A DNA stretch of 64,000 nt. Source: Psychroflexus sp. ALD_RP9. GTDB taxonomy: Bacteria; Bacteroidota; Bacteroidia; Flavobacteriales; Flavobacteriaceae. Below are positions 56,104 to 64,000 of the stretch, in pieces. Numbering within the stretch: position 1 is the stretch's first letter; each line of letters begins with the position of its first letter. The notes below the pieces were generated by a model. It was given only the letters and a program-made list of their open reading frames with translations. It did not search any database and had not been told where the DNA came from. The position numbers were made by a program, and so were the translations under genes. The stretch is taken from the NCBI RefSeq assembly GCF_017311165.1, contig NZ_CP062973.1, forward strand, positions 930,001 to 994,000, written 5' to 3'.

Positions 56104-57026
56104 TGCATCAAAAAGCCTACAGTCACGGAAAATTACTCATTACTGGTGAGTATGCCATTTTAGACGGTGCTTGGGGTCTTGCTTTACCTACAAAACTTGG
56201 GCAATCTTTAAGCTTACATCCCATCGAAGGCAAGAGTTGGCAGTGGAATAGTTATTTACACAACAAGAAACTATGGCAACAAATTGAATTTGAAACCAAA
56301 GACATTTTAGAATTTGATATAGACTTAAATAAACTAGATTTTAAGGGCAGAATTTTACAATTGTTACATGCAATTTACCAGCTGAAATCGCCTTTGTTAA
56401 GTGCTAATCAGGCCTTTCAAGTTAAGACTCAACTTGAGTTTCCTAAAGATTGGGGATTAGGTTCATCTTCTACTTTAGTTGCTAATTTAGCCGAGTGCTT
56501 TCAGGTCAATGCTTACGAATTGTTAGAGCTTAGCTTTGGTGGTAGCGGTTATGATTTGGCTTGTGCTAAGGCTAAACAAGCTCTTATTTATGAACGCCAA
56601 GGCTTTACGCCTAAAATTAGCTACACAGCATTAAGCCCAAAGTTAACATCGCATGTTTATTTTGTCTATCGTAATCAAAAACAAAACAGCAGAGAAGCTA
56701 TACAATACTATCGACAAACGCCAAAACCTAACTTAAATACTGCTATTAAGCAGCTCAATCTAATTACAAAAGACTTAACTTCAACCGATGATCTTAATCA
56801 AGCTGAAGATTTGTTATTAAAGCATGAAGCCATCATAGGCAAGCTGATTAATCAAATTCCGGTTCAGCAAAAATTATTTTCAGATTACAGCTCGGGAATT
56901 GTAAAAAGCCTTGGTGCTTGGGGTGGCGATTTTATGTTAGTAACAGCAAAGCAACCTCAAGATTTAGATTATTTTAGAGATAAAGGCTACTCAATTATCA
57001 AAACCTATTCTAGCTTTGTTTTGTAA
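56103..57026 (+). CDS. GYDIA-type GHMP kinase
   Basis: A 307-residue GHMP-superfamily kinase found next to HMG-CoA reductase in flavobacteria. The ATP-binding loop appears as DWGLGSSSTLVANL. The family-naming motif reads SGYDLACAKAKQ here, with Leu for Ile. The N-terminus AYSHGKLLITGEYAILDG is a GHMP start. It is likely a mevalonate-pathway kinase, but which step it catalyses cannot be read from the sequence. Its ATG overlaps the upstream stop (TAATG). The long repeat tract begins about 95 nt after its stop. Confidence 0.9.
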   Translation: MHQKAYSHGKLLITGEYAILDGAWGLALPTKLGQSLSLHPIEGKSWQWNSYLHNKKLWQQIEFETKDILEFDIDLNKLDFKGRILQLLHAIYQLKSPLLSANQAFQVKTQLEFPKDWGLGSSSTLVANLAECFQVNAYELLELSFGGSGYDLACAKAKQALIYERQGFTPKISYTALSPKLTSHVYFVYRNQKQNSREAIQYYRQTPKPNLNTAIKQLNLITKDLTSTDDLNQAEDLLLKHEAIIGKLINQIPVQQKLFSDYSSGIVKSLGAWGGDFMLVTAKQPQDLDYFRDKGYSIIKTYSSFVL

Positions 57027-57120: not shown

Positions 57121-57530
57121 TAGACGTACGAGTTACTGATAACTGCTAACCAAAAAACAGCTATAAGCTGTAAGCCTTAAGCAATAAGCAAAAAATACCT
57201 AGAGACTAGAACTAACAAAACGGCTCACTAATCACAACTCACCATTCACGATTCACGAATCACGAACCACAGAAAATTGCCAACCGCTAACTATAAACCG
57301 GTTCTCGATACACTTTTTCTTTCCACAAGGTTTCAAGAAAAACCACTCGAACTGACAGTAGATAACAGATAACCGACAACTGTCTATAGCCTATTGCTTA
57401 AAGCCTAGAGCTGATAAAACGATTCACTAATCACGATTCACTGACAACTGATAACAGCTATAAGCTGTAAGCAAAGAATGCATAGAGCCAACTAAGCAAT
57501 TCACGAATATAGTAAAACTGCTTACCAATT
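57121..57530 (-). repeat. Heptamer-word repeat tract 1 (opposite orientation)
   Basis: In the 565-nt gap between the GHMP kinase gene and the convergent ppiD-type gene, most sequence consists of degenerate 7-nt words. On the plus strand they are reverse complements of those at 59.8-64 kb: GATTCAC/GAATCAC (H family), GATAACA/GACAACT (Q family), and GCTTAAA/GCCTAGA or CTATAAG/CTGTAAG (T family). The register holds for eight words in a row at 57361-57416. Read on the minus strand, the order is Q, H, T, Q, H, T, Q. A separate hairpin repeat interrupts it at 57300-57356. The remaining ~95 nt (57027-57120) hold nothing I can name. Confidence 0.8.
57300..57356. repeat. Hairpin repeat with GGTTCTCGATACA and ACTCGAACTGAC ends
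   Basis: The unit begins GGTTCTCGATACA and ends ACTCGAACTGAC, with TTTTTC (57314-57319) and GAAAAA (57337-57342) pairing inside and a further CC/GG at the tip. I recall this pair of ends from intergenic repeats in many flavobacteria; that memory could not be checked here. Confidence 0.55.
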
Positions 57531-57543
57531 ACTGAGAAGAAAT

Positions 57544-57577
57544 AAAAAAAGCCATCTTAAAAGACAGCTTTTTTTAG
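57544..57577. terminator. Bidirectional terminator near the ppiD-type gene
   Basis: AAAAAAAGC, two unpaired bases and TCTT pair with AAGA, two unpaired bases and GCTTTTTTT. It is 15 nt past the ppiD-type stop and has A and T runs on both sides. Confidence 0.65.
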
Positions 57578-57591
57578 TGATCAGAGTTTTC

Positions 57592-59748
57592 TTAGTAAAA
57601 TAAAGTCCTTTTATCTTCAATCTCCGTCCCTTCTTTTAGGGCTTTATAAACAGGATTAAGTTTTGGGTTGGTATAACTTCTTGAAGTTGGTTGTACTTTC
57701 TGGTCAAAAGTCTGAATACGGCGTTTAGTTTCTTGTGTGGCCATACCGACATAAGAAGGTAGTTCAGCTGCAGGTTGTGTACCGGTTAGTTTAATAAAAT
57801 AAACTCCTTTTTCACCTTGAATTGGTTGACTTACTTCATTTTCTGAAAGTGCAAAAGCTGCTCCAACCACTTTCGGCTCACTACCACTACCTGGTAAAAC
57901 AGGGCTGCTCATATTAACCGCAGATGCTTTTTGAACTGAAACTTCAAATTTGCTTGCAACAGCGTTTAAATCCTTAGTTTGAATTTGAGCTATAAGTTCT
58001 TCAGCTTGTTTTTGCTTTTTTAAGATTGGTGTTACAGTTGCTGAAGCTTCTTCAACACTTTGAACACCTTCATTAGTAGCGTTTACTAATTCTGCCACAA
58101 CATATCCATTTGAAATGTCAAAACGTTTAACTGAACCCACTTTGGCTTCATCTGAAAAAGCCCATTTAACGATAGAACGCTGTTGACCTAAACCGGAAAT
58201 GGTTTCGTCAAGCGCTTTCATATTATTAACGGGTTTTACCTTTAGGTTTTCTGCTTTAGCGGCTTCTTCTAAAGAGGTATCTTCAGCTGCTAACTCAAAG
58301 TTAGAGGCTTTTCTATATAGATTGTTTAAAGTTAACTCAGATGGGTTTACTGTTTTTACAATCGTTGCTAGTTTAACTGCTGGTTTAGGCTCGGTTTTAT
58401 CTTCTACAAAAACCACGTGGTAGCCAAATTCAGTTTCAACAACGCCTTTATGATTTGGTTGCTGATCGAAAACATAATCATTAAAATCTTCTACTAATCG
58501 GCCGTAAGTTACCCAATTTAAATCTCCACCATTTCCTGCACTTTGACGATCTGCTGAAAATTTCTCAGCTAAATCTCCAAATTGCTCAATATCATTAGAA
58601 ATTAATGTTTGTAAGCTATCGGCTAAAGCTTTGGCTTCATCTTGTGTTCTCGTCACTTGAGGATCAACTCCTGTACCTTCATAAGTGACTAAGATATGCT
58701 TTAATTTAATAGAATCTGGTAAGTTAGTTTGCTCTAACATTTTAATTAAACGAAACTGTTGGCCTGATTTAATAGGCTCTAAAACTTCACCTTCAGTTAA
58801 GGCTAATATCTCGTCTTTATTTTCTTTTAAGTTATAGTTGAAGGTATAAACATCAGCAAATGGAACATCTGAATTACGATTCACAAAACCCTCGACATCA
58901 TCAGTGGTTTTAAAACCTTTTATAACTTGGTTGCTATCTGAAACCTGATCGTATTCTTCACGGTCAGTTAGTAATTCTTTTAAGTCGTCTTCAACTGCTG
59001 TAAAGTCTTCAGCTGAAGGCTCTTCTTTAAAATGTACTAATTTAATATCACGTTCAGCTTCTTGTTTAAACTGCGTTTTATTCTGATTGATATAAGCTTT
59101 AATGTCGGCTTTAGAAACTTCAACATCAGTAGCCTTAGTATAAGGAATTTTTACAAAGTCGATATTAAGTCTATCGTTTTGTTGTTTGTAAGCTTGTTTA
59201 GCTTCTAGTTTTGTAGCACCGATACCTGCTTTAATCATATCATAATATAATTCAGACTTAGCAATGGTTTCTATACTTTCTTCAAAGTCTAACCATTGTT
59301 GGTATTGTTGAGGTGAAGTTAATTTGATTTCAGCAACGTATTGTTTCATTTTAGCCTCATCAAAAAAACCAGCTTCATTTGAGAATTGTGGATTTCCAGC
59401 TAAACGTTCGGCCATCACATTTATAATTTGGTCTTGACCAACTTGTAAACCTAAGCTTTCGAACTCTTGGTCTAAAAGCATTTGGTACACTTTAGAGTCC
59501 CAAACCTGATTGACAGCTTGAATTGTTGAAACACGGCCTTGTGATTGTTGTACTCTATTTTCAACAATTTGAACAAATTCTTCTCTTGAGATTTCTTCGT
59601 CTCCAACGACTCCTATATTACTTAAGGATTTGTTTGAAGTGAAACCACCTTGCTTGATTAAATCTGCTAAAACAAATGAGAATAAAGCTAAAGCTATGAT
59701 TACAATTAAAAAGACGGTACGTTGTCTAATCTTATTTAAAATCGCCAT
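57592..59748 (-). CDS. PpiD/SurA-type peptidyl-prolyl isomerase, membrane-anchored
   Basis: A 718-residue folding factor for exported proteins. The N-terminus (MAILNKIRQRTVFLIVIIALALFSFVLADLI) is a single membrane anchor, as in PpiD. A SurA-N-like chaperone region follows, then a parvulin rotamase domain near residues 345-455 (KLKHILVTYEGTG, GGDLNWVTYGRLVEDF, ETEFGYHVVFVED). The remainder resembles a second, degenerate rotamase-like part. It would work in the periplasm next to the inner membrane. It is flanked on both sides by word-repeat tracts in opposite orientations. Confidence 0.92.
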   Translation of the reverse strand: MAILNKIRQRTVFLIVIIALALFSFVLADLIKQGGFTSNKSLSNIGVVGDEEISREEFVQIVENRVQQSQGRVSTIQAVNQVWDSKVYQMLLDQEFESLGLQVGQDQIINVMAERLAGNPQFSNEAGFFDEAKMKQYVAEIKLTSPQQYQQWLDFEESIETIAKSELYYDMIKAGIGATKLEAKQAYKQQNDRLNIDFVKIPYTKATDVEVSKADIKAYINQNKTQFKQEAERDIKLVHFKEEPSAEDFTAVEDDLKELLTDREEYDQVSDSNQVIKGFKTTDDVEGFVNRNSDVPFADVYTFNYNLKENKDEILALTEGEVLEPIKSGQQFRLIKMLEQTNLPDSIKLKHILVTYEGTGVDPQVTRTQDEAKALADSLQTLISNDIEQFGDLAEKFSADRQSAGNGGDLNWVTYGRLVEDFNDYVFDQQPNHKGVVETEFGYHVVFVEDKTEPKPAVKLATIVKTVNPSELTLNNLYRKASNFELAAEDTSLEEAAKAENLKVKPVNNMKALDETISGLGQQRSIVKWAFSDEAKVGSVKRFDISNGYVVAELVNATNEGVQSVEEASATVTPILKKQKQAEELIAQIQTKDLNAVASKFEVSVQKASAVNMSSPVLPGSGSEPKVVGAAFALSENEVSQPIQGEKGVYFIKLTGTQPAAELPSYVGMATQETKRRIQTFDQKVQPTSRSYTNPKLNPVYKALKEGTEIEDKRTLFY

Positions 59749-59847
59749 TGTTAGTTATTTATAATATAGTTGGCGAAAATAAAACAATTAACCAATAAAT
59801 AAAACATTAAGGCTTTGAAAGTTTTTTTAATAGCGCTGATGTTTATC

Positions 59848-60195
59848 CGTGAGTCGTGAATGGTGTAGTTGGCTTTAAGCTTTAGGCAATAGGCCTTTTC
59901 TGCTTATTAGTGTAATGGTGTAGTGGTATAATGGTAGATGTCGGTTTTCAGTGAATGGTGAATGGTGAATAGTGAATGGTGAATAGTGAATGGTGATTCG
60001 TGGTTGTGAATGGTGAATAGTGAATGGTGAATGGTTGATTAGTTGACTATTTGACTGGGCTTGGAGTTAACTAATAGCTGTTATCAGTTGTCTGTTGTCA
60101 GTGATTCGTGATTTGTGAGTCGTGATTTGTGAATCGTGAATCGTGAGTCGTTTTTTGGCTTTAGGCTTTAGACTGTAGCTTTATCACTTTAAAGG
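59848..60195 (+). repeat. Heptamer-word repeat tract 2
   Basis: In the 901-nt gap between the ompA-type and ppiD-type genes. It holds H words (GTGAATG, GTGAATA, GTGAGTC, GTGATTT), T words (GGCTTTA at 60157-60163 and 60164-60170, AGCTTTA, GACTGTA), P octamers (GTGTAATG 59910-59917, GTGTAGTG, GTATAATG) and Q words (TGTTATC, AGTTGTC). The order is H, T, linker TTTTCTGCTTATTA, P, Q-like, H, then a non-repeat insert (about 60035-60078), Q, H, T. The Q to H junction AGTGATTC is at 60100-60107. Confidence 0.8.
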
Positions 60196-60208
60196 TTCTC
60201 AGTACTGG

Positions 60209-60233
60209 GATTTCACTGATTGTTGGTGAAATC
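60209..60233. repeat. Small hairpin GATTTCAC/GTGAAATC
   Basis: A perfect 8-bp stem with a 9-nt loop in the intergenic region. No U run follows, so it is not an obvious terminator. GGTTCTC (60194-60200) and GAGAACC (60302-60308) enclose it as a longer inverted pair. Confidence 0.5.
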
Positions 60234-60285
60234 GAATTTAAATTAATCTTTTTAAACTTTATTTCTATTCATTTTGTCTTGACAC

Positions 60286-60328
60286 AATCCCGAAATTTCG
60301 GGAGAACCAAATCCCGAAGCATCGGGAT
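60286..60328. repeat. Two adjacent REP-like CCCGA palindromes
   Basis: TCCCGAAATTTCGGGA (60288-60303) is a perfect palindrome and ATCCCGAAGCATCGGGAT (60311-60328) a second hairpin with the same arms and a different tip. They lie 7 nt apart. Short GC-rich palindromes of this type resemble REP elements. Confidence 0.65.
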
Positions 60329-60330
60329 TA

Positions 60331-60453
60331 GACTAATTTAAGGAAATTTTTGCGGCGCTAGGCTCTGCAAAACCATTGCTGGTATTTTTGCTGCATGCTT
60401 ATCACTGCGTGATGCACTTCCGCAAATACCACAATTATTTCTGGAAATTAGTC
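60331..60453. repeat. Inverted-repeat element of ~120 bp (MITE-like or structured RNA)
   Basis: The left arm (60331-60355, GACTAATTT...TTTGCGG) and the reverse complement of the right arm (60420-60453) both begin GACTAATTT, share GAAAT and end TTTGCGG, so the element could fold into a long imperfect stem. Inside, ATCAC/GTGAT (60401-60405 with 60409-60413) forms a tip hairpin near TGCAT/ATGCA. No coding potential was seen. It contrasts sharply in composition with the word tracts around it. Confidence 0.6.
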
Positions 60454-60464
60454 GAATTTGACTA

Positions 60465-60590
60465 TTTGTGTAATGATGTAGTGGTATAATATTGAATCGT
60501 GAGTCGTTTTTTTGGCTTTAGACTGTAGGCTGTAGGTGCTTTTCGCTTATGGCTGTTTTGTGTAGTGTTGTAGTGACGTAATAGTATTCT
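60465..60590 (+). repeat. Heptamer-word repeat tract 3
   Basis: Follows the inverted-repeat element directly. P octamers (GTGTAATG, ATGTAGTG), H words (TGAATC, GTGAGTC 60499-60505), a T run, then T words GGCTTTA, GACTGTA, GGCTGTA (60514-60534), linker TTTTCGCTTATGG and P-like GTGTAGTG, TTGTAGTG. The order P, H, T, linker, P fits the cycle seen elsewhere, with Q lost. Confidence 0.75.
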
Positions 60591-60593
60591 AAT

Positions 60594-60628
60594 AAAAAAA
60601 GCCTTCAACTTTTTGTTGAAGGCTTTTT
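60594..60628. terminator. Intrinsic terminator after the ompA-type gene
   Basis: Stem AAAAAGCCTTCAAC/GTTGAAGGCTTTTT (60596-60609 with 60615-60628) with a 5-nt loop, flanked by A and T runs. Strong and symmetrical; on the minus strand it lies 22 nt past the ompA-type stop. Confidence 0.9.
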
Positions 60629-60649
60629 ACATATAATTAAGATTTTTTA

Positions 60650-61951
60650 TTATTTGATTTCGAAAATTACTCGTCTTACAAGTTGTCTTGCATCTTTAGA
60701 AGACTTATTAACCGAGTTGTCAATTCCTCCACCTTGATATGATAAGCGCGATTTTTCTATTCCCGAAGCGACTAAGATGTCATAAACGCGTTTCGCACGA
60801 TTTTCAGATAAAGTTTTATTGAATTCAGCATTTCCGATTTCATCAGCATAACCTGTTAGGCTTGCTGTTGCTGTATTGTTGGCTCTCAAGTAAAGTAAAA
60901 TTTTGTTGATTGCATCGTATGAATAAGTTTCTGGCTTAGTGCTTCCAAACTCAAAATACACACTTATAGCACCATCATTAGCCATTGCTTTAACGCTCTC
61001 AAGACCAGCTTTTGCGATAGCTGACTCTGCTTCATTTTTAGACATGAATCGTTTTTCAAGCGACTTTTCTAACTCATCAGGCACACCGTTTTGATTTTTA
61101 TCAACGGCTTGACCTTTTGTATTAACGGCTACACCATTAACCGTATTAGGTTCTAAGTCAAGATAATTTGGCACACCGTCACGGTCGTCATCTTGAAGCT
61201 CTGATTCTAATTTAGCTAAACGGTTTTCTACAGAGTTAACTTGTTCTTCGAACTGATCTGTTTTACTAATATTTACCCAATCAGCATGTTGATCATTACT
61301 ACCTAAGTAAATCGATAAACCAGCTGTTGCATTAACAATCATCCCATCGAAATCACGTGAAACAGTTCTTGCTTGACCGTCAATAGTGTAGTCTTGTTTA
61401 AAGTTACCTATTGTTGTTAGATCGACATAAAAAGCGAACCGATCTGATAATTTGATTTGTGGCGTAATACCAAACATGAAATTTACTGTAGCTTCGTTAT
61501 CGACAAGACTAGACTCTGGATAAGTGAAAAAACTTACACCTGCACCACCATGACCTAACACATTAAAACGTTGAGTAAAGCTTTGGAAGTTTAAAATTGA
61601 GCCAAAATTTAATACGGCTTGCGCATTGATTCTTGCATAATCTGTTGAAAAGTCAAACGGTGACTCATCATCGGCAGATATTTCGCCGAAACCACCATCA
61701 AGTTTAAGTCCGAACTTATCATTAAACATGTACCTTACACCTAAGTCAATCATGAAATCTGAAAACATTCCAGCTTCAATTGAAGGGTCAGAAAATGGAT
61801 TTGAAGCCTTGCTCACGCCACCACCAAAATCAAGCGACCACTTATTGTAATTTACTTCAGAAGATTTCTGCTCAGAAGATTGGTCTGTTTGCGCAAATGA
61901 CTGAAATACAGTAAAAATCATCACAGCCAATAATAGAGTTGTTTTTTTCAT
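60650..61951 (-). CDS. OmpA-family outer-membrane protein
   Basis: A 433-residue protein with a signal peptide (MKKTTLLLAVMIFTVFQSFAQ), an N-terminal beta barrel of about 210 residues, a calcium-binding type-3 repeat-like linker (DDDRDGVPNYLDLEPNTV and DKNQNGVPDELE) and a C-terminal OmpA peptidoglycan-binding domain (GYADEIGNAEFNKTLSENRAKRVYDIL). It links the outer membrane to the cell wall. I chose the ATG at 61951, where the signal peptide begins; the earlier start adds nine residues and overlaps the promoter side. Such proteins are usually abundant. Confidence 0.92.
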   Translation of the reverse strand: MKKTTLLLAVMIFTVFQSFAQTDQSSEQKSSEVNYNKWSLDFGGGVSKASNPFSDPSIEAGMFSDFMIDLGVRYMFNDKFGLKLDGGFGEISADDESPFDFSTDYARINAQAVLNFGSILNFQSFTQRFNVLGHGGAGVSFFTYPESSLVDNEATVNFMFGITPQIKLSDRFAFYVDLTTIGNFKQDYTIDGQARTVSRDFDGMIVNATAGLSIYLGSNDQHADWVNISKTDQFEEQVNSVENRLAKLESELQDDDRDGVPNYLDLEPNTVNGVAVNTKGQAVDKNQNGVPDELEKSLEKRFMSKNEAESAIAKAGLESVKAMANDGAISVYFEFGSTKPETYSYDAINKILLYLRANNTATASLTGYADEIGNAEFNKTLSENRAKRVYDILVASGIEKSRLSYQGGGIDNSVNKSSKDARQLVRRVIFEIK

Positions 61952-61975
61952 GGTTAAGTTTTTTGTTTCAATTAG

Positions 61976-61983
61976 CAAATATA
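61976..61983 (-). promoter_or_regulatory. Candidate -7 box for the ompA-type gene
   Basis: Minus-strand TATATTTG, a perfect -7 match, 25-32 nt before the start codon. No TTG at the -33 position; the boundary of word tract 4 is about 100 nt further upstream. Confidence 0.4.
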
Positions 61984-62089
61984 GTTAATATTCAATTACT
62001 TAAAAGATTTTAGTTTCTTTTTTACGATTTGTTAATCCTATTGACTTGATTTAAGTGGAATTTTAAGGTTTTTTGTTATCAGTAACCAT

Positions 62090-62275
62090 TGAATCGTGAG
62101 TCGTGAGTCGTGAATCGTGAGTCGTGAGTCGTGAGTCGTGAATCGTGAATCGTGAATGGTGAGTCGTGATGCGTGTAATAGTGTAATCGTATAATGGTGT
62201 AGTAGTAGTAGTAAAATCGGTTGTCGGTTGTCGGTTGTCGGTGAATCATGAGTCGTGATTCGTGAGTCGTGCTTT
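62090..62275 (+). repeat. Heptamer-word repeat tract 4
   Basis: Upstream of the ompA-type gene. About ten H words (GTGAGTC, GTGAATC, GTGAATG, GTGATGC) run in strict 7-nt register from 62096 to 62172, then P octamers (GTGTAATA, GTGTAATC, GTATAATG, GTGTAGTA) to 62204, the junction word GTAAAATC (62211-62218), three Q words GGTTGTC (62219-62239) and again H words. A reverse-strand open frame over it is a product of the repeat. The remaining gap sequence (61984-62089 and 62276-62407) holds only a small AAAAGGT/ACCTTTT hairpin at 62350-62368. Confidence 0.85.
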
Positions 62276-62407
62276 GTGAAATGCTTGTTAGTGTTCTTGG
62301 CTTCGAGCGAACATAAATATATCTTTTTTTAATTTGTGAACGTTGGGTGAAAAGGTTCATGACCTTTTAAAAAGAAAGCATATGAGCTTAGAAAAGATTT
62401 TGAATAA

Positions 62408-62435
62408 AAACCACTCCAGTAGACTGAAGTGGTTT
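62408..62435 (-). terminator. Probable terminator after the conserved unknown gene
   Basis: AAACCACT/AGTGGTTT (62408-62415 with 62428-62435) with inner AGT/ACT pairing, 27 nt past the stop at 62463. On the minus strand it is followed by a short T run. Confidence 0.6.
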
Positions 62436-62462
62436 CATTTGATCACATCAATTCAACCTGGG

Positions 62463-63215
62463 TTAAATTATTTCTATGATTTGAAGGGCATTAAACGCAC
62501 CATTTAACAAAGGGTATTGTTCCCCATTAAATTCCTGAAAATAAGCTACCTTCATGAAATAATAGGTTTCTCCTGCTGCCGATGGTGTACTACTAAAATT
62601 AAGGTTAATAGTTGAGGCGGTGCTGTCTATCATTAAATTTTCGACATTACTTATTGCCACTTCACCTTGACCTGTTGCAAAATCAAAATTCATTATTGCC
62701 GCACTTAATTCGACATGGGTAGCACCCTGAGGAATACCCAAATTAAGTTGAGGTATAAAATCATTAATGATAATTTCATTGGTCGCTGTGTCAAGGTTAT
62801 AATTAGATTTTAGCACTGCATCTAATGTTGCTTTTTTATTGAAGTCGAAAAACTTCAAAGCTTCTTTCCCTTCTGGACTTGCAATTCCTACACTTACTTT
62901 TCGTTGACCGCGACTTGAGGTTAAATCGTATTTTTTTACCTGATTAAGTCGACTAGTTAGCCTGTAAATTTTGGAACGATCGGGCACATCAGCTAATAAA
63001 TTAGCAATTGCTCTTCTATACATTTTACCGCTTTTTGCGATATGCCCAAATTCTTGTCCATTTTCACGTGTTCTTATAAAAGCCGGATCGTTTTCTATTC
63101 GACTTTTTGATACTCCGCTTTTGGTCTTGACCAAGTATTCGCCATCTTGGTTCTTATAGAAGGTCATCCCATCCAGGGTTCCTTCAATTTTTAATAACGA
63201 CTTTAGTTTTGCCAT
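62463..63215 (-). CDS. Conserved flavobacterial protein of unknown function
   Basis: A 250-residue protein I recognise only as a recurring Bacteroidetes family, beginning MAKLKSLLKIEGTLDGMTFYKN and followed by GVSKSRIENDPAFIRTRENGQEFG. There is no signal peptide or membrane segment. The N-terminal ~100 residues are basic and look nucleic-acid- or surface-binding-like; the C-terminal half is beta-rich, with LNLNFSSTPSAAGETYYFMKVAYFQEFNG. No function is assigned. It lies alone, with word-repeat tracts on both sides, and a terminator at its end. I recall relatives occurring in several copies per genome, but cannot check this here. Confidence 0.7.
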   Translation of the reverse strand: MAKLKSLLKIEGTLDGMTFYKNQDGEYLVKTKSGVSKSRIENDPAFIRTRENGQEFGHIAKSGKMYRRAIANLLADVPDRSKIYRLTSRLNQVKKYDLTSSRGQRKVSVGIASPEGKEALKFFDFNKKATLDAVLKSNYNLDTATNEIIINDFIPQLNLGIPQGATHVELSAAIMNFDFATGQGEVAISNVENLMIDSTASTINLNFSSTPSAAGETYYFMKVAYFQEFNGEQYPLLNGAFNALQIIEII

Positions 63216-63574
63216 CTCTTTAAATTTTAAGCCTATTATTTCAAGGCATGTTAATAATTGAATTAGAATCTTAAGAGTCTTACCTTGCGCGCAAAAACTT
63301 CAACTTATTGTCGACTTTCAAATTTTAAAGTTTCTGTTTTTTTTAAATCCGGTACACTTTCTTAAGTATTACTATGGCAAATTTAAGGCGGCTATTTATT
63401 TGATTATGCGCAGTTTAGTGTATCCTCATAGATTTTGATAAAATTAGTGGTTTTAATAATTTTTGACGCTTAATGCGTTTTTTGACGCTTTTTGCACCTG
63501 AGTACGTTCCTTGAATTAATACTTGAGCTATACTTAAGCTATACTTAAGCTCTGGGTGAGGTATGGTAGAAAAT
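63216..63574. other. Intergenic region without a recognisable gene
   Basis: AT-rich sequence upstream of the conserved unknown gene. It holds TTGCGCGCAA (63283-63292), two copies of TTTTGACGCTT (near 63462 and 63480), and an exact 11-nt tandem duplication AGCTATACTTA (63526-63536 and 63537-63547). No -7 box matching TAnnTTTG was found near the gene start. Confidence 0.5.
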
Positions 63575-64000
63575 GGTTGGCTGTTGTCGGTTGTCAGTTT
63601 TCTGTTATCGGTTGTCAGTGATTCGTGAGTCGTGATGCGTGATGCGTGATGCGTGATGCGTGTAATAGTATCCCGTGATTTGTGAATAGTGAATCGTGAC
63701 TGGTGTGAAGAGGTGTTGTCTGTTTGCAGTTTTCTGTGAATCGTGATGCGTGTAATTGCGTGTAATAGTGTAATCGTATAATGGTGCAGTAGTAAAATCG
63801 GTTGTCGGTTGTCGGTTGTCCGTTGTCAGTTTTCTGTTATCGGTTGTCAGTGATTCGTGAGTCGTGAATGGTGAATCGTGAGTTGTTTTGTTGGCTTTAG
63901 GCTTTAAGCTCTAGGCTTTAGGCGCTATTTTCCTATTAGTGTAATGGTATAGTGGTTTAGTAGTAAAATCGGTTGTCGGTTGTCGGTTGTCTGTTTTCTG
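63575..64000 (+). repeat. Heptamer-word repeat tract 5, running off the window
   Basis: The longest tract. It shows nearly the full cycle: Q (GGTTGTC, AGTTTTC, TGTTATC), H (GTGAGTC, four GTGATGC at 63632-63659), P, H, P (GTGTAATA, GTGTAATC, GTATAATG, 63760-63783), GTAAAATC (63792-63799), Q (63800-63848), H, T (GGCTTTA, AGCTCTA, GGCGCTA, 63893-63927), linker TTTTCCTATTA, P, GTAAAATC, Q. A 46-nt stretch occurs twice without change (63590-63635 and 63822-63867). The tract continues beyond 64000. Confidence 0.85.

What the first reader, a model, noticed from the sequence alone, without database searches (positions are those of the whole stretch)
57121..64000. Repeat tracts built from four short word families in a fixed cyclic order
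Five intergenic tracts (about 1.5 kb in total) parse almost completely into 7- and 8-nt words. Family H is GTGANTC and variants, Q is GGTTGTC/AGTTTTC/TGTTATC, T is GGCTTTA/AGCTCTA/GACTGTA, and P is GTGTAATG/GTATAATG. The families follow one order, Q to H to T to P and back to Q, with T or P sometimes skipped. The junctions themselves are conserved: AGTGATTC from Q to H (60100, 63617, 63849), a T-rich spacer from H to T (60150, 60506, 63881), TTTTC..TATTA-like from T to P (59896, 63928; variant near 60540) and GTAAAATC from P to Q (62211, 63792, 63963). A simple microsatellite would not keep several unrelated words in order. Inference: a higher-order repeat copied by some process that works in short units, comparable in scale to the heptamer STRR repeats of cyanobacteria but with an added grammar.
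Basis: partly seen in the sequence, partly recalled or inferred. Interest (0 to 1): 0.85.

Follow-up and report, generated by a model that had tools for sequence, protein, structure and literature searches.

The report
Ordered word-repeat tracts with gene-linked words
Gaps between genes in this bacterium are filled with 7- and 8-letter DNA words in a preferred order, and words of the same families bracket a widespread small protein gene (S23) in related bacteria, which may help to explain repeats that have puzzled microbiologists for years.

Summary
Five spacers of a Psychroflexus-type genome are built from 7-nt (Q, H, T) and 8-nt (P) words; the 57.1-kb tract is the weakest. Word order is non-random in this genome and in P. 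salarius (109 of 166 word changes go one step forward; no shuffle reaches it). It is not significant in seven other species' loci, five of them small samples. The usual path is Q>H, then T or P, and P>Q; direct T>P is rare.

Most likely these are composite, gene-less arrays of words that bracket S23/IVP (PF05635, four-helix-bundle) genes. In Flavobacteriaceae, a Bacteroidota sample and cyanobacterial plasmids, S23 flanks show 7-nt periodicity, absent at ParE and GIY-YIG genes. At one orthologous site the arms are H words in two species, P in two, Q in four, and S23 sequences group the same way (loci ascertained by word matches). Related S23 proteins at unrelated sites carry similar words more than chance, also without word-ascertained loci; agreement in word length is only marginal with one gene per site group. 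Searches found no paper making this link.

Against: no S23 gene or relic in the window; 28 of 30 H-array loci elsewhere have none within 1.5 kb. Mechanism is inferred.

The parts
57121..57540 (-). Word tract, G-rich words on the - strand (Q, T, H words), between a + gene ending at 57026 and the PPIase gene; weakest of the five
   Evidence: coverage 0.35 vs shuffle mean 0.07
59850..60185 (+). Word tract with H, T, P, Q words upstream of the PPIase gene
   Evidence: coverage 0.72 vs 0.11; order
60034..60057 (+). Short run of a possible fifth word family (GTTGATTA GTTGACTA TTTGACTG, 8 nt), a family seen in S23 arms of other Psychroflexus loci; weak
   Evidence: window 60034; arms L209, L230, L250, L253; the pattern also occurs once in 40 kb of control
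60465..60595 (+). Short word tract (P, H, T, P) beyond the end of the OmpA-family gene
   Evidence: coverage 0.45 vs 0.08, shuffle max 0.34
62085..62290 (+). Word tract Q, H run, P, Q, H upstream of the OmpA-family gene
   Evidence: coverage 0.73 vs 0.16; order
63570..64000 (+). Longest tract; runs past the window end to 994013 of the chromosome
   Evidence: coverage 0.78 vs 0.10; L031:18582-19013
62211..62218 (+). P-to-Q junction GTAAAATC (also 63792 and 63963)
   Evidence: counts

Best explanation
The tracts are composite arrays of 7- and 8-nt words that belong to the lexicon of S23/IVP elements. An S23 element, as seen in many genomes here, is a gene for a small four-helix-bundle protein (PF05635) lying between two arms made of 7- or 8-nt words, and related S23 genes tend to have the same word. 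Q, H, T (7 nt) and P (8 nt) are four such word families. In the ancestor of this genome and P. salarius, arms of different families came to lie side by side without their S23 genes. They then grew and shrank by whole words (slippage or template switching between repeats), and the composite was copied between spacers in two regions; this froze the order Q>H>(T or P), P>Q. Shown: the arrays, the order, the periodic arms at S23 genes, and the statistical link between S23 relatedness and word. Inferred: that the S23 protein recognises its word, that the window tracts descend from S23 arms, and how they grow.
For: Periodic arms: of 191 S23 genes in loci fetched for S23 itself, 81 have a called 7-nt and 20 an 8-nt period in their flanks, against 3 and 2 of 190 control windows 700-810 nt away (with 14 genes from word-fetched loci, 91 and 23 of 205). 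Flank complementarity z>4 in 26 of 50 S23 genes vs 11 of 192 other ORFs of the same regions, 5 of those 11 carrying the S23-like NIAEG motif. Lag-7 excess 0.136 vs 0.023; 0.060, 0.093 and 0.060 in three further S23 sets but -0.008 at ParE and -0.004 at GIY-YIG genes; 0.216 vs 0.022 on cyanobacterial plasmids. Same families in the genus: at the ABC2-S23-ABC site of eight genomes the arms are H words in G000 and G003, P in G022 and G001, Q in G016, G008, G021 and G012 (loci fetched for word matches), and S23 identities group likewise (77%; 94%; 70-99%; about 32-48% between groups). T words flank S23 in L231, L248 and L072. S23 relatedness predicts words at unrelated sites: mean word similarity 56.7 vs null 30.1 for 30 component pairs at 60% identity or more, 0/2000 permutations, word-fetched loci excluded (59.2 vs 29.0 for 34 pairs with them). 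Nearest different-context neighbour shares the word class in 13 of 20 labelled representatives (null 4.7, 0/2000). In this genome 3 of 4 S23 loci (1 intact, 2 broken) lie within the span of cluster B.
Against: No S23 gene or relic in the window or cluster A (best E 0.95). Only 2 of 30 H-array loci in Flavobacteriaceae have S23 within 1.5 kb (some loci overlap, three are cut short). 80 of 191 S23 genes show no clear period, and 156 of 205 have arms in none of the five word classes tried, so the lexicon is far wider than four words. Agreement in word length is 85 of 96 over all genes (null 64.7, 0/1000) but only 45 of 57 with one gene per site group (null 39.1, 105/2000). Over all 18,839 different-context pairs the rank correlation is 0.10 and at least one of 200 permutations exceeded it; 11 of 34 pairs at 60% or more exceed the 99th percentile of background, and many single pairs have background-level word similarity. 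In the 60-locus set H and T two-word hits were enriched (12 vs 0; 4 vs 1) but Q and P gave 0 in S23 flanks and controls alike. Complementarity z>4 in only 3 of 10 cyanobacterial loci that could be scored. The G-rich-up, C-rich-down skew of S23 flanks is also seen at ParE genes (20 and 21 of 27), and is weak in Psychroflexus S23 (20 and 14 of 28). The link between S23 and word could be arms travelling with the gene rather than recognition.
Confidence: 0.55

Rival explanations
1. Plain slippage: the tracts are ordinary heptamer/octamer microsatellites of the STRR/TAACTGA kind that arise by polymerase slippage in weakly constrained spacers; the order is only shared ancestry and duplication. S23 genes merely tend to sit in such arrays.
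For: 28 of 30 H-array loci have no S23 within 1.5 kb. The backwards control pattern occurs in 22 of 199 Flavobacteriaceae genomes (my count of the table) against 24 of 199 for the H pattern, so H itself is not special. Order weakens once similar tracts are removed strictly. Heptamer excess has been put down to polymerase slippage (passage in PMC4692102).
Against: Does not explain why S23 genes, but not ParE or GIY-YIG genes, are bracketed by 7/8-nt words, nor why S23 relatedness predicts words at unrelated sites.
Confidence: 0.29
2. Recombination platform: the tracts are homology islands that let polysaccharide genes and small cassettes be swapped between spacers and strains; the order is kept because long shared composites recombine best.
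For: Cluster B lies among polysaccharide genes with ParE, HU-HIG and PIN genes between tracts; P. salarius has ParE, PIN and HigB/HTH genes and G021 a PemK gene between tracts. Cluster A leads into a sugar-transferase gene. In the PPIase-OmpA spacer P. salarius holds a HigB/HTH pair that this genome lacks, while about the first 108 nt of the spacer are identical (by eye).
Against: ParE genes in general are not bracketed by words. No toxin-antitoxin gene was identified in cluster A of this genome. Explains location, not word structure. No recombination junction was traced.
Confidence: 0.12
3. Regulatory RNA or protein-binding sites: the words act in the transcripts of neighbouring genes, as proposed for TAACTGA repeats upstream of start codons in Beggiatoaceae.
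For: MacGregor 2015 proposes this for other bacteria (PMC4679880, abstract and sections 10 and 24 read).
Against: Tracts here differ between two species whose flanking PPIase and OmpA proteins are 96 and 98% identical, lie in convergent as well as codirectional spacers, and match no Rfam family at the gathering score.
Confidence: 0.04

Closest known systems
TAACTGA heptamer direct repeats of Beggiatoaceae, Cyanobacteria and some Bacteroidetes (MacGregor 2015, PMC4679880; abstract, sections 10 and 24 read)
   Same: Intergenic direct repeats with a 7-nt unit, mixed with other heptamers in some Bacteroidetes and Microcystis; in two Cyanothece strains they differ mostly by 7-nt indels. The AGTTATC form of Q is a rotation of the reverse complement of TAACTGA.
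   Different: Here several word families, one of them 8 nt, stand in a preferred order with conserved junctions. A word search of the paper's main text found no S23, four-helix or intervening.
GGGAATC heptamers of Xanthomonas and related heptamers of Nostoc (PMC4692102, passages read); STRR repeats of cyanobacteria (name recalled, listing only)
   Same: 7-nt unit, degenerate at fixed positions (GGGANTN there, GTGANTC here), mostly intergenic, with an example of an inverted pair.
   Different: By the passages read that study followed one motif per species and reports no order; 90% of repeats lie between the same ORFs in two species.
S23/IVP intervening-sequence elements (Coxiella IVS, PMC4990558, passages read; PF05635; nearest PDB sequence 2gsc)
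   Same: S23 gene between complementary arms, as in 26 of 50 S23 loci tested; words of the arms include those of the tracts.
   Different: The window tracts hold no S23 gene and are not in 23S rRNA; the Coxiella arms are a 28-bp stem, not described as word arrays in the passages read.

Membership tests
Heptamer (STRR/TAACTGA-type) intergenic arrays | Tandem direct repeats with a 7-nt unit | tested here: met
   H, Q, T words 7 nt apart in 101 of 107 steps in cluster A; P is 8 nt
Heptamer (STRR/TAACTGA-type) intergenic arrays | Intergenic position | tested here: met
   The five tracts lie between the larger ORFs; the 93-aa ORF at 62079-62360 only reads through a tract
Heptamer (STRR/TAACTGA-type) intergenic arrays | Exact TAACTGA direct repeats | not tested
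   Only the wider Q family was counted
S23/IVP element | S23 (PF05635) open reading frame | tested here: not met
   None in the window or cluster A; present in cluster B
S23/IVP element | Arms of 7/8-nt words of the same families | tested here: met
   H, P, Q at one site and T at others in the genus; loci partly ascertained by words
S23/IVP element | Arms on both sides of an S23 ORF | tested here: not met
   Window tracts are solo
23S rRNA intervening sequence | Location inside 23S rRNA | tested here: not met
   Spacers between protein genes; no Rfam match in the window
23S rRNA intervening sequence | Excision by RNase III | not testable with these tools
   -
Simple microsatellite | One repeated unit per array | tested here: not met
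   Up to four families per tract in a preferred order

The most novel reading that the evidence does not exclude
S23/IVP proteins are word readers: each S23 lineage recognises its own 7- or 8-nt word and maintains or spreads arrays of it. The heptamer repeats of cyanobacteria, Beggiatoaceae and Bacteroidota are then recognition arrays of one family of small mobile elements, and the ordered tracts here are stacked, gene-less arrays of at least four of them. This would give the S23 family a molecular role and the repeats a cause.
Probability: 0.36. Interest if true: 0.9.

Novelty: new variant of a known kind. Interest (0 to 1): 0.73.

Why it matters
Heptamer repeats have, as far as I know, no accepted cause, and the S23 family no settled function, although it is found in 113 of 149 Flavobacteriaceae genomes sampled, one per genus. 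A link between protein lineage and word turns both puzzles into one testable binding question. The ordered tracts are a natural record of how such words are stacked and copied.

Tried and rejected
Rfam scan of the window: no match at gathering scores. DGR-like adenine mutagenesis of the words was considered and dropped without computing it, since H and P vary at other positions. Replication-strand orientation: dnaA lies at 415 (+) and the two clusters have opposite main orientation, but both hold exceptions and 7 of 8 GC-skew windows of the window are negative, so no claim is made. The H word as a specially favoured sequence: rejected. Toxin-antitoxin genes as general carriers of word arms: rejected for ParE (2 of 27 with z>4, no lag-7 excess). 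GIY-YIG genes have complementary flanks (8 of 26) but no 7-nt period. A 220-nt element between tracts was searched (12 of 40 genomes, this one included, all of the genus) and not resolved. A scan of named genomes with the Q-to-H junction gave 4 stretches: two on one P. salarius contig, one in P. sediminis beside an S23 gene, and one in Myroides indicus with a single match and no array around it. A tree count gave 6 changes of word class among 20 labelled representatives with no null printed, so the nearest-neighbour test is used instead.

Paper searches: ten in all; those that bear on an S23-heptamer link are 33, 44, 61 and 86. Their listings are capped (20 of 48, 4 of 4, 12 of 232, 12 of 40 papers shown) and none of the papers shown makes the link by title or start of abstract. 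Read: PMC4679880 (abstract, sections 10 and 24, word finds); PMC4990558, PMC4853749 and PMC4692102 (passages only). The library lacks most subscription journals.

Full report
Setting. The window is bases 930001-994000 of a one-contig genome of 2,555,922 bases. The genus is Psychroflexus by inference: contig C19 of relative G022 has the length of NZ_FQTW01000007.1 (P. salarius), and contig C10 of G024 that of NZ_FNCW01000023.1 (P. sediminis).

The observation. The five tracts are there and are made of the stated words. A one-cycle query taken from the window has 38 matches in the genome: 37 in two clusters, A at 987-996 kb (mostly + strand) and B at 1718-1759 kb (mostly - strand), and one at 1015 kb. 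Of 60 genomes searched, this one included, 15 have matches: 13 of this genus, one of another genus of the family and one of another family.

The order. Collapsing runs and counting changes of word family between neighbours at most 12 nt apart, the one-step-forward changes (Q>H, H>T, T>P, P>Q) exceed all 1000 shuffles in cluster A, cluster B and P. salarius. The counts over 166 changes are Q>H 63, H>P 31, P>Q 23, H>T 20, H>Q 10 and T>P 3, the rest smaller than 10 each. The order holds when one tract per similarity group is kept (85% over 50 nt: 45 of 69, 0/2000) and becomes marginal under strict grouping, where sharing words is nearly enough to link tracts. It is not significant in the fetched loci of G003 and G021, nor in five small sets. 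GTAAAATC before Q was seen only in this genome and P. salarius among the loci examined. In P. salarius a unit of about 76 nt (P words, GTAAAATC, Q words, A, H words) repeats many times in a row. The order is therefore real and, as far as tested, lineage-specific.

Where they lie. Genes around cluster B include Poly_export, an AAA_31/GNVR (Wzc-like) protein, a UDP-sugar dehydrogenase, ABC transporter parts and glycosyltransferases; cluster A leads into an ATP-grasp-like and a sugar-transferase gene. The window genes beside the tracts are a PPIase, an OmpA-family protein and a 250-aa protein without Pfam match. Small genes between tracts are ParE, HU-HIG and PIN in cluster B, ParE, PIN and HigB/HTH in P. 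salarius and PemK in G021. Between this genome and P. salarius the PPIase-OmpA spacer is identical for about its first 108 nt and then differs through the tract, including a 7-nt gap and the HigB/HTH pair present only in P. salarius (by eye).

The S23 link. Small genes flanked on both sides by word arrays proved to be PF05635 (23S rRNA intervening-sequence protein, S23). The nearest solved sequence is 2gsc, with five chains. PF05635 occurs in 113 of 149 Flavobacteriaceae genomes, 26 of 27 of this genus and 90 of 118 in a phylum sample, this genome included each time. For 60 of the listed matches, 50 with both flanks of at least 20 nt, the flanks complement each other (z>4 in 26 of 50 against 11 of 192 other ORFs of the same regions; 5 of those 11 carry the NIAEG motif of S23 and one is a GIY-YIG gene), with an excess at lags 7, 14 and, less, 8. 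In three other sets z>4 is rarer: 10 of 30, 9 of 28 and 14 of 28. Strict period calling in 191 S23 genes fetched for S23 itself gives 7 nt for 81 and 8 nt for 20, against 3 and 2 of 190 control windows; 80 have no clear period. ParE (27 genes) and GIY-YIG (26 genes) flanks lack the period. On cyanobacterial plasmids (11 loci of the 25 matching records) the lag-7 excess is 0.216 in 21 arms against 0.022 in 33 other gaps, with GGGAGTA, AAAGCTA and GGAGTCA words around S23 genes, some of which lie within cas operons or between nrd genes; complementarity z>4 holds in only 3 of the 10 that could be scored. A Riemerella plasmid S23 has AAGGTTC-like arms (z 8.7). The G-over-C skew upstream and C-over-G skew downstream (86% of 58 and 83% of 52) is not specific: ParE flanks show it too.

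The same families. At the ABC2-S23-ABC site in eight Psychroflexus genomes the arms are H words in two, P in two and Q in four; complementarity z>4 in 6 of 8. These loci had been fetched because of word matches, so the choice of genomes is biased towards these words. S23 identity is 77% between the H pair, 94% between the P pair and 70-99% among the Q set, but about 32-48% between sets. T words flank other S23 genes of the genus. Across unrelated sites, the nearest relatives of the H-type S23 of this genome carry GTGA words (L277, L270, L273), those of the P type carry 8-nt GTGTATTC-like words (L212, L215, L252), and the Q type's nearest relative in another genus (L040, 68%, itself fetched by words) carries Q words. 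Formally, with word-fetched loci left out, 30 component pairs at 60% identity or more have mean word similarity 56.7 against 30.1 (0 of 2000 permutations). Over all pairs the rank correlation is weak, 0.10, and many single pairs are at background level. Word length agrees with the nearest relative in 85 of 96 over all genes (null 64.7) but in 45 of 57 with one gene per site group (null 39.1, 105/2000), so that part is only suggestive.

Limits. No S23 gene or convincing relic lies in the window's tracts. H arrays in Flavobacteriaceae mostly stand alone (2 of 30 loci with S23 within 1.5 kb), and their backwards control is about as common. So S23 genes often have word arms, but word arrays often have no S23 gene. 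That the solo tracts descend from S23 arms is the inference on which the best explanation rests; its support is the shared word families within one genus and the S23 loci, intact and broken, within cluster B of the same genome (3 of 4).

Mechanism, marked. Shown: words, order, periodic S23 arms, statistical S23-to-word correspondence. Inferred: S23 proteins recognise their words; arms grow by whole words through slippage or template switching; arms of several families were stacked in an ancestor and the composite was copied between spacers, which fixed the order. The solo tracts most likely have no function of their own beyond being remnants and recombination substrates (inference).

Novelty. 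Heptamer repeats in Bacteroidota and Cyanobacteria are known (PMC4679880, PMC4692102), as is the S23 gene in a stem-loop in rRNA (PMC4990558). Ordered multi-family tracts, and the correspondence of S23 relatedness with word, were not found in the searches named in Tried and rejected, whose listings were capped.

Noticed in passing
window 57300-57360: Copy of a dispersed repeat (TTCTCGATACA ... CACTCGAACTGACAG). Sequences that look alike flank some GIY-YIG genes in other Flavobacteriaceae, whose flanks are complementary (8 of 26 with z>4) but without a 7-nt period, so GIY-YIG genes may have their own arm type.
   Followed up: partly
L036:5811-6413 (chromosome 1750.8-1751.4 kb): An S23 gene is split in two by a GIY-YIG gene lying inside it: one small selfish-looking gene nested in another.
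   Followed up: partly
L065:7513-8962 (P. salarius): HigB/HTH pair between word tracts in the PPIase-OmpA spacer, absent from the same spacer in the window genome.
   Followed up: partly
L110, L117, L120, L126: S23 genes in at least these four genera sit between what look like the same two genes; from reading the flanks I take them for fadB and fadA, not checked with a family search.
   Followed up: no
L235, L240, L243: Four-helix-bundle (S23) genes sit inside cyanobacterial CRISPR-cas operons (type I-D between cas6 and cas4; type III-B between cas10 and a Cmr3-family gene) with word-like flanks.
   Followed up: no
L035:3880-4100, L067, L078: Dispersed element of about 220 nt between tracts, matches in 12 of 40 genomes, all of the genus; nature unknown.
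   Followed up: partly
L065 and L068 contig ends: Two P. salarius contigs end within about 310 and 120 bases of word tracts, so draft assemblies may undercount them.
   Followed up: no
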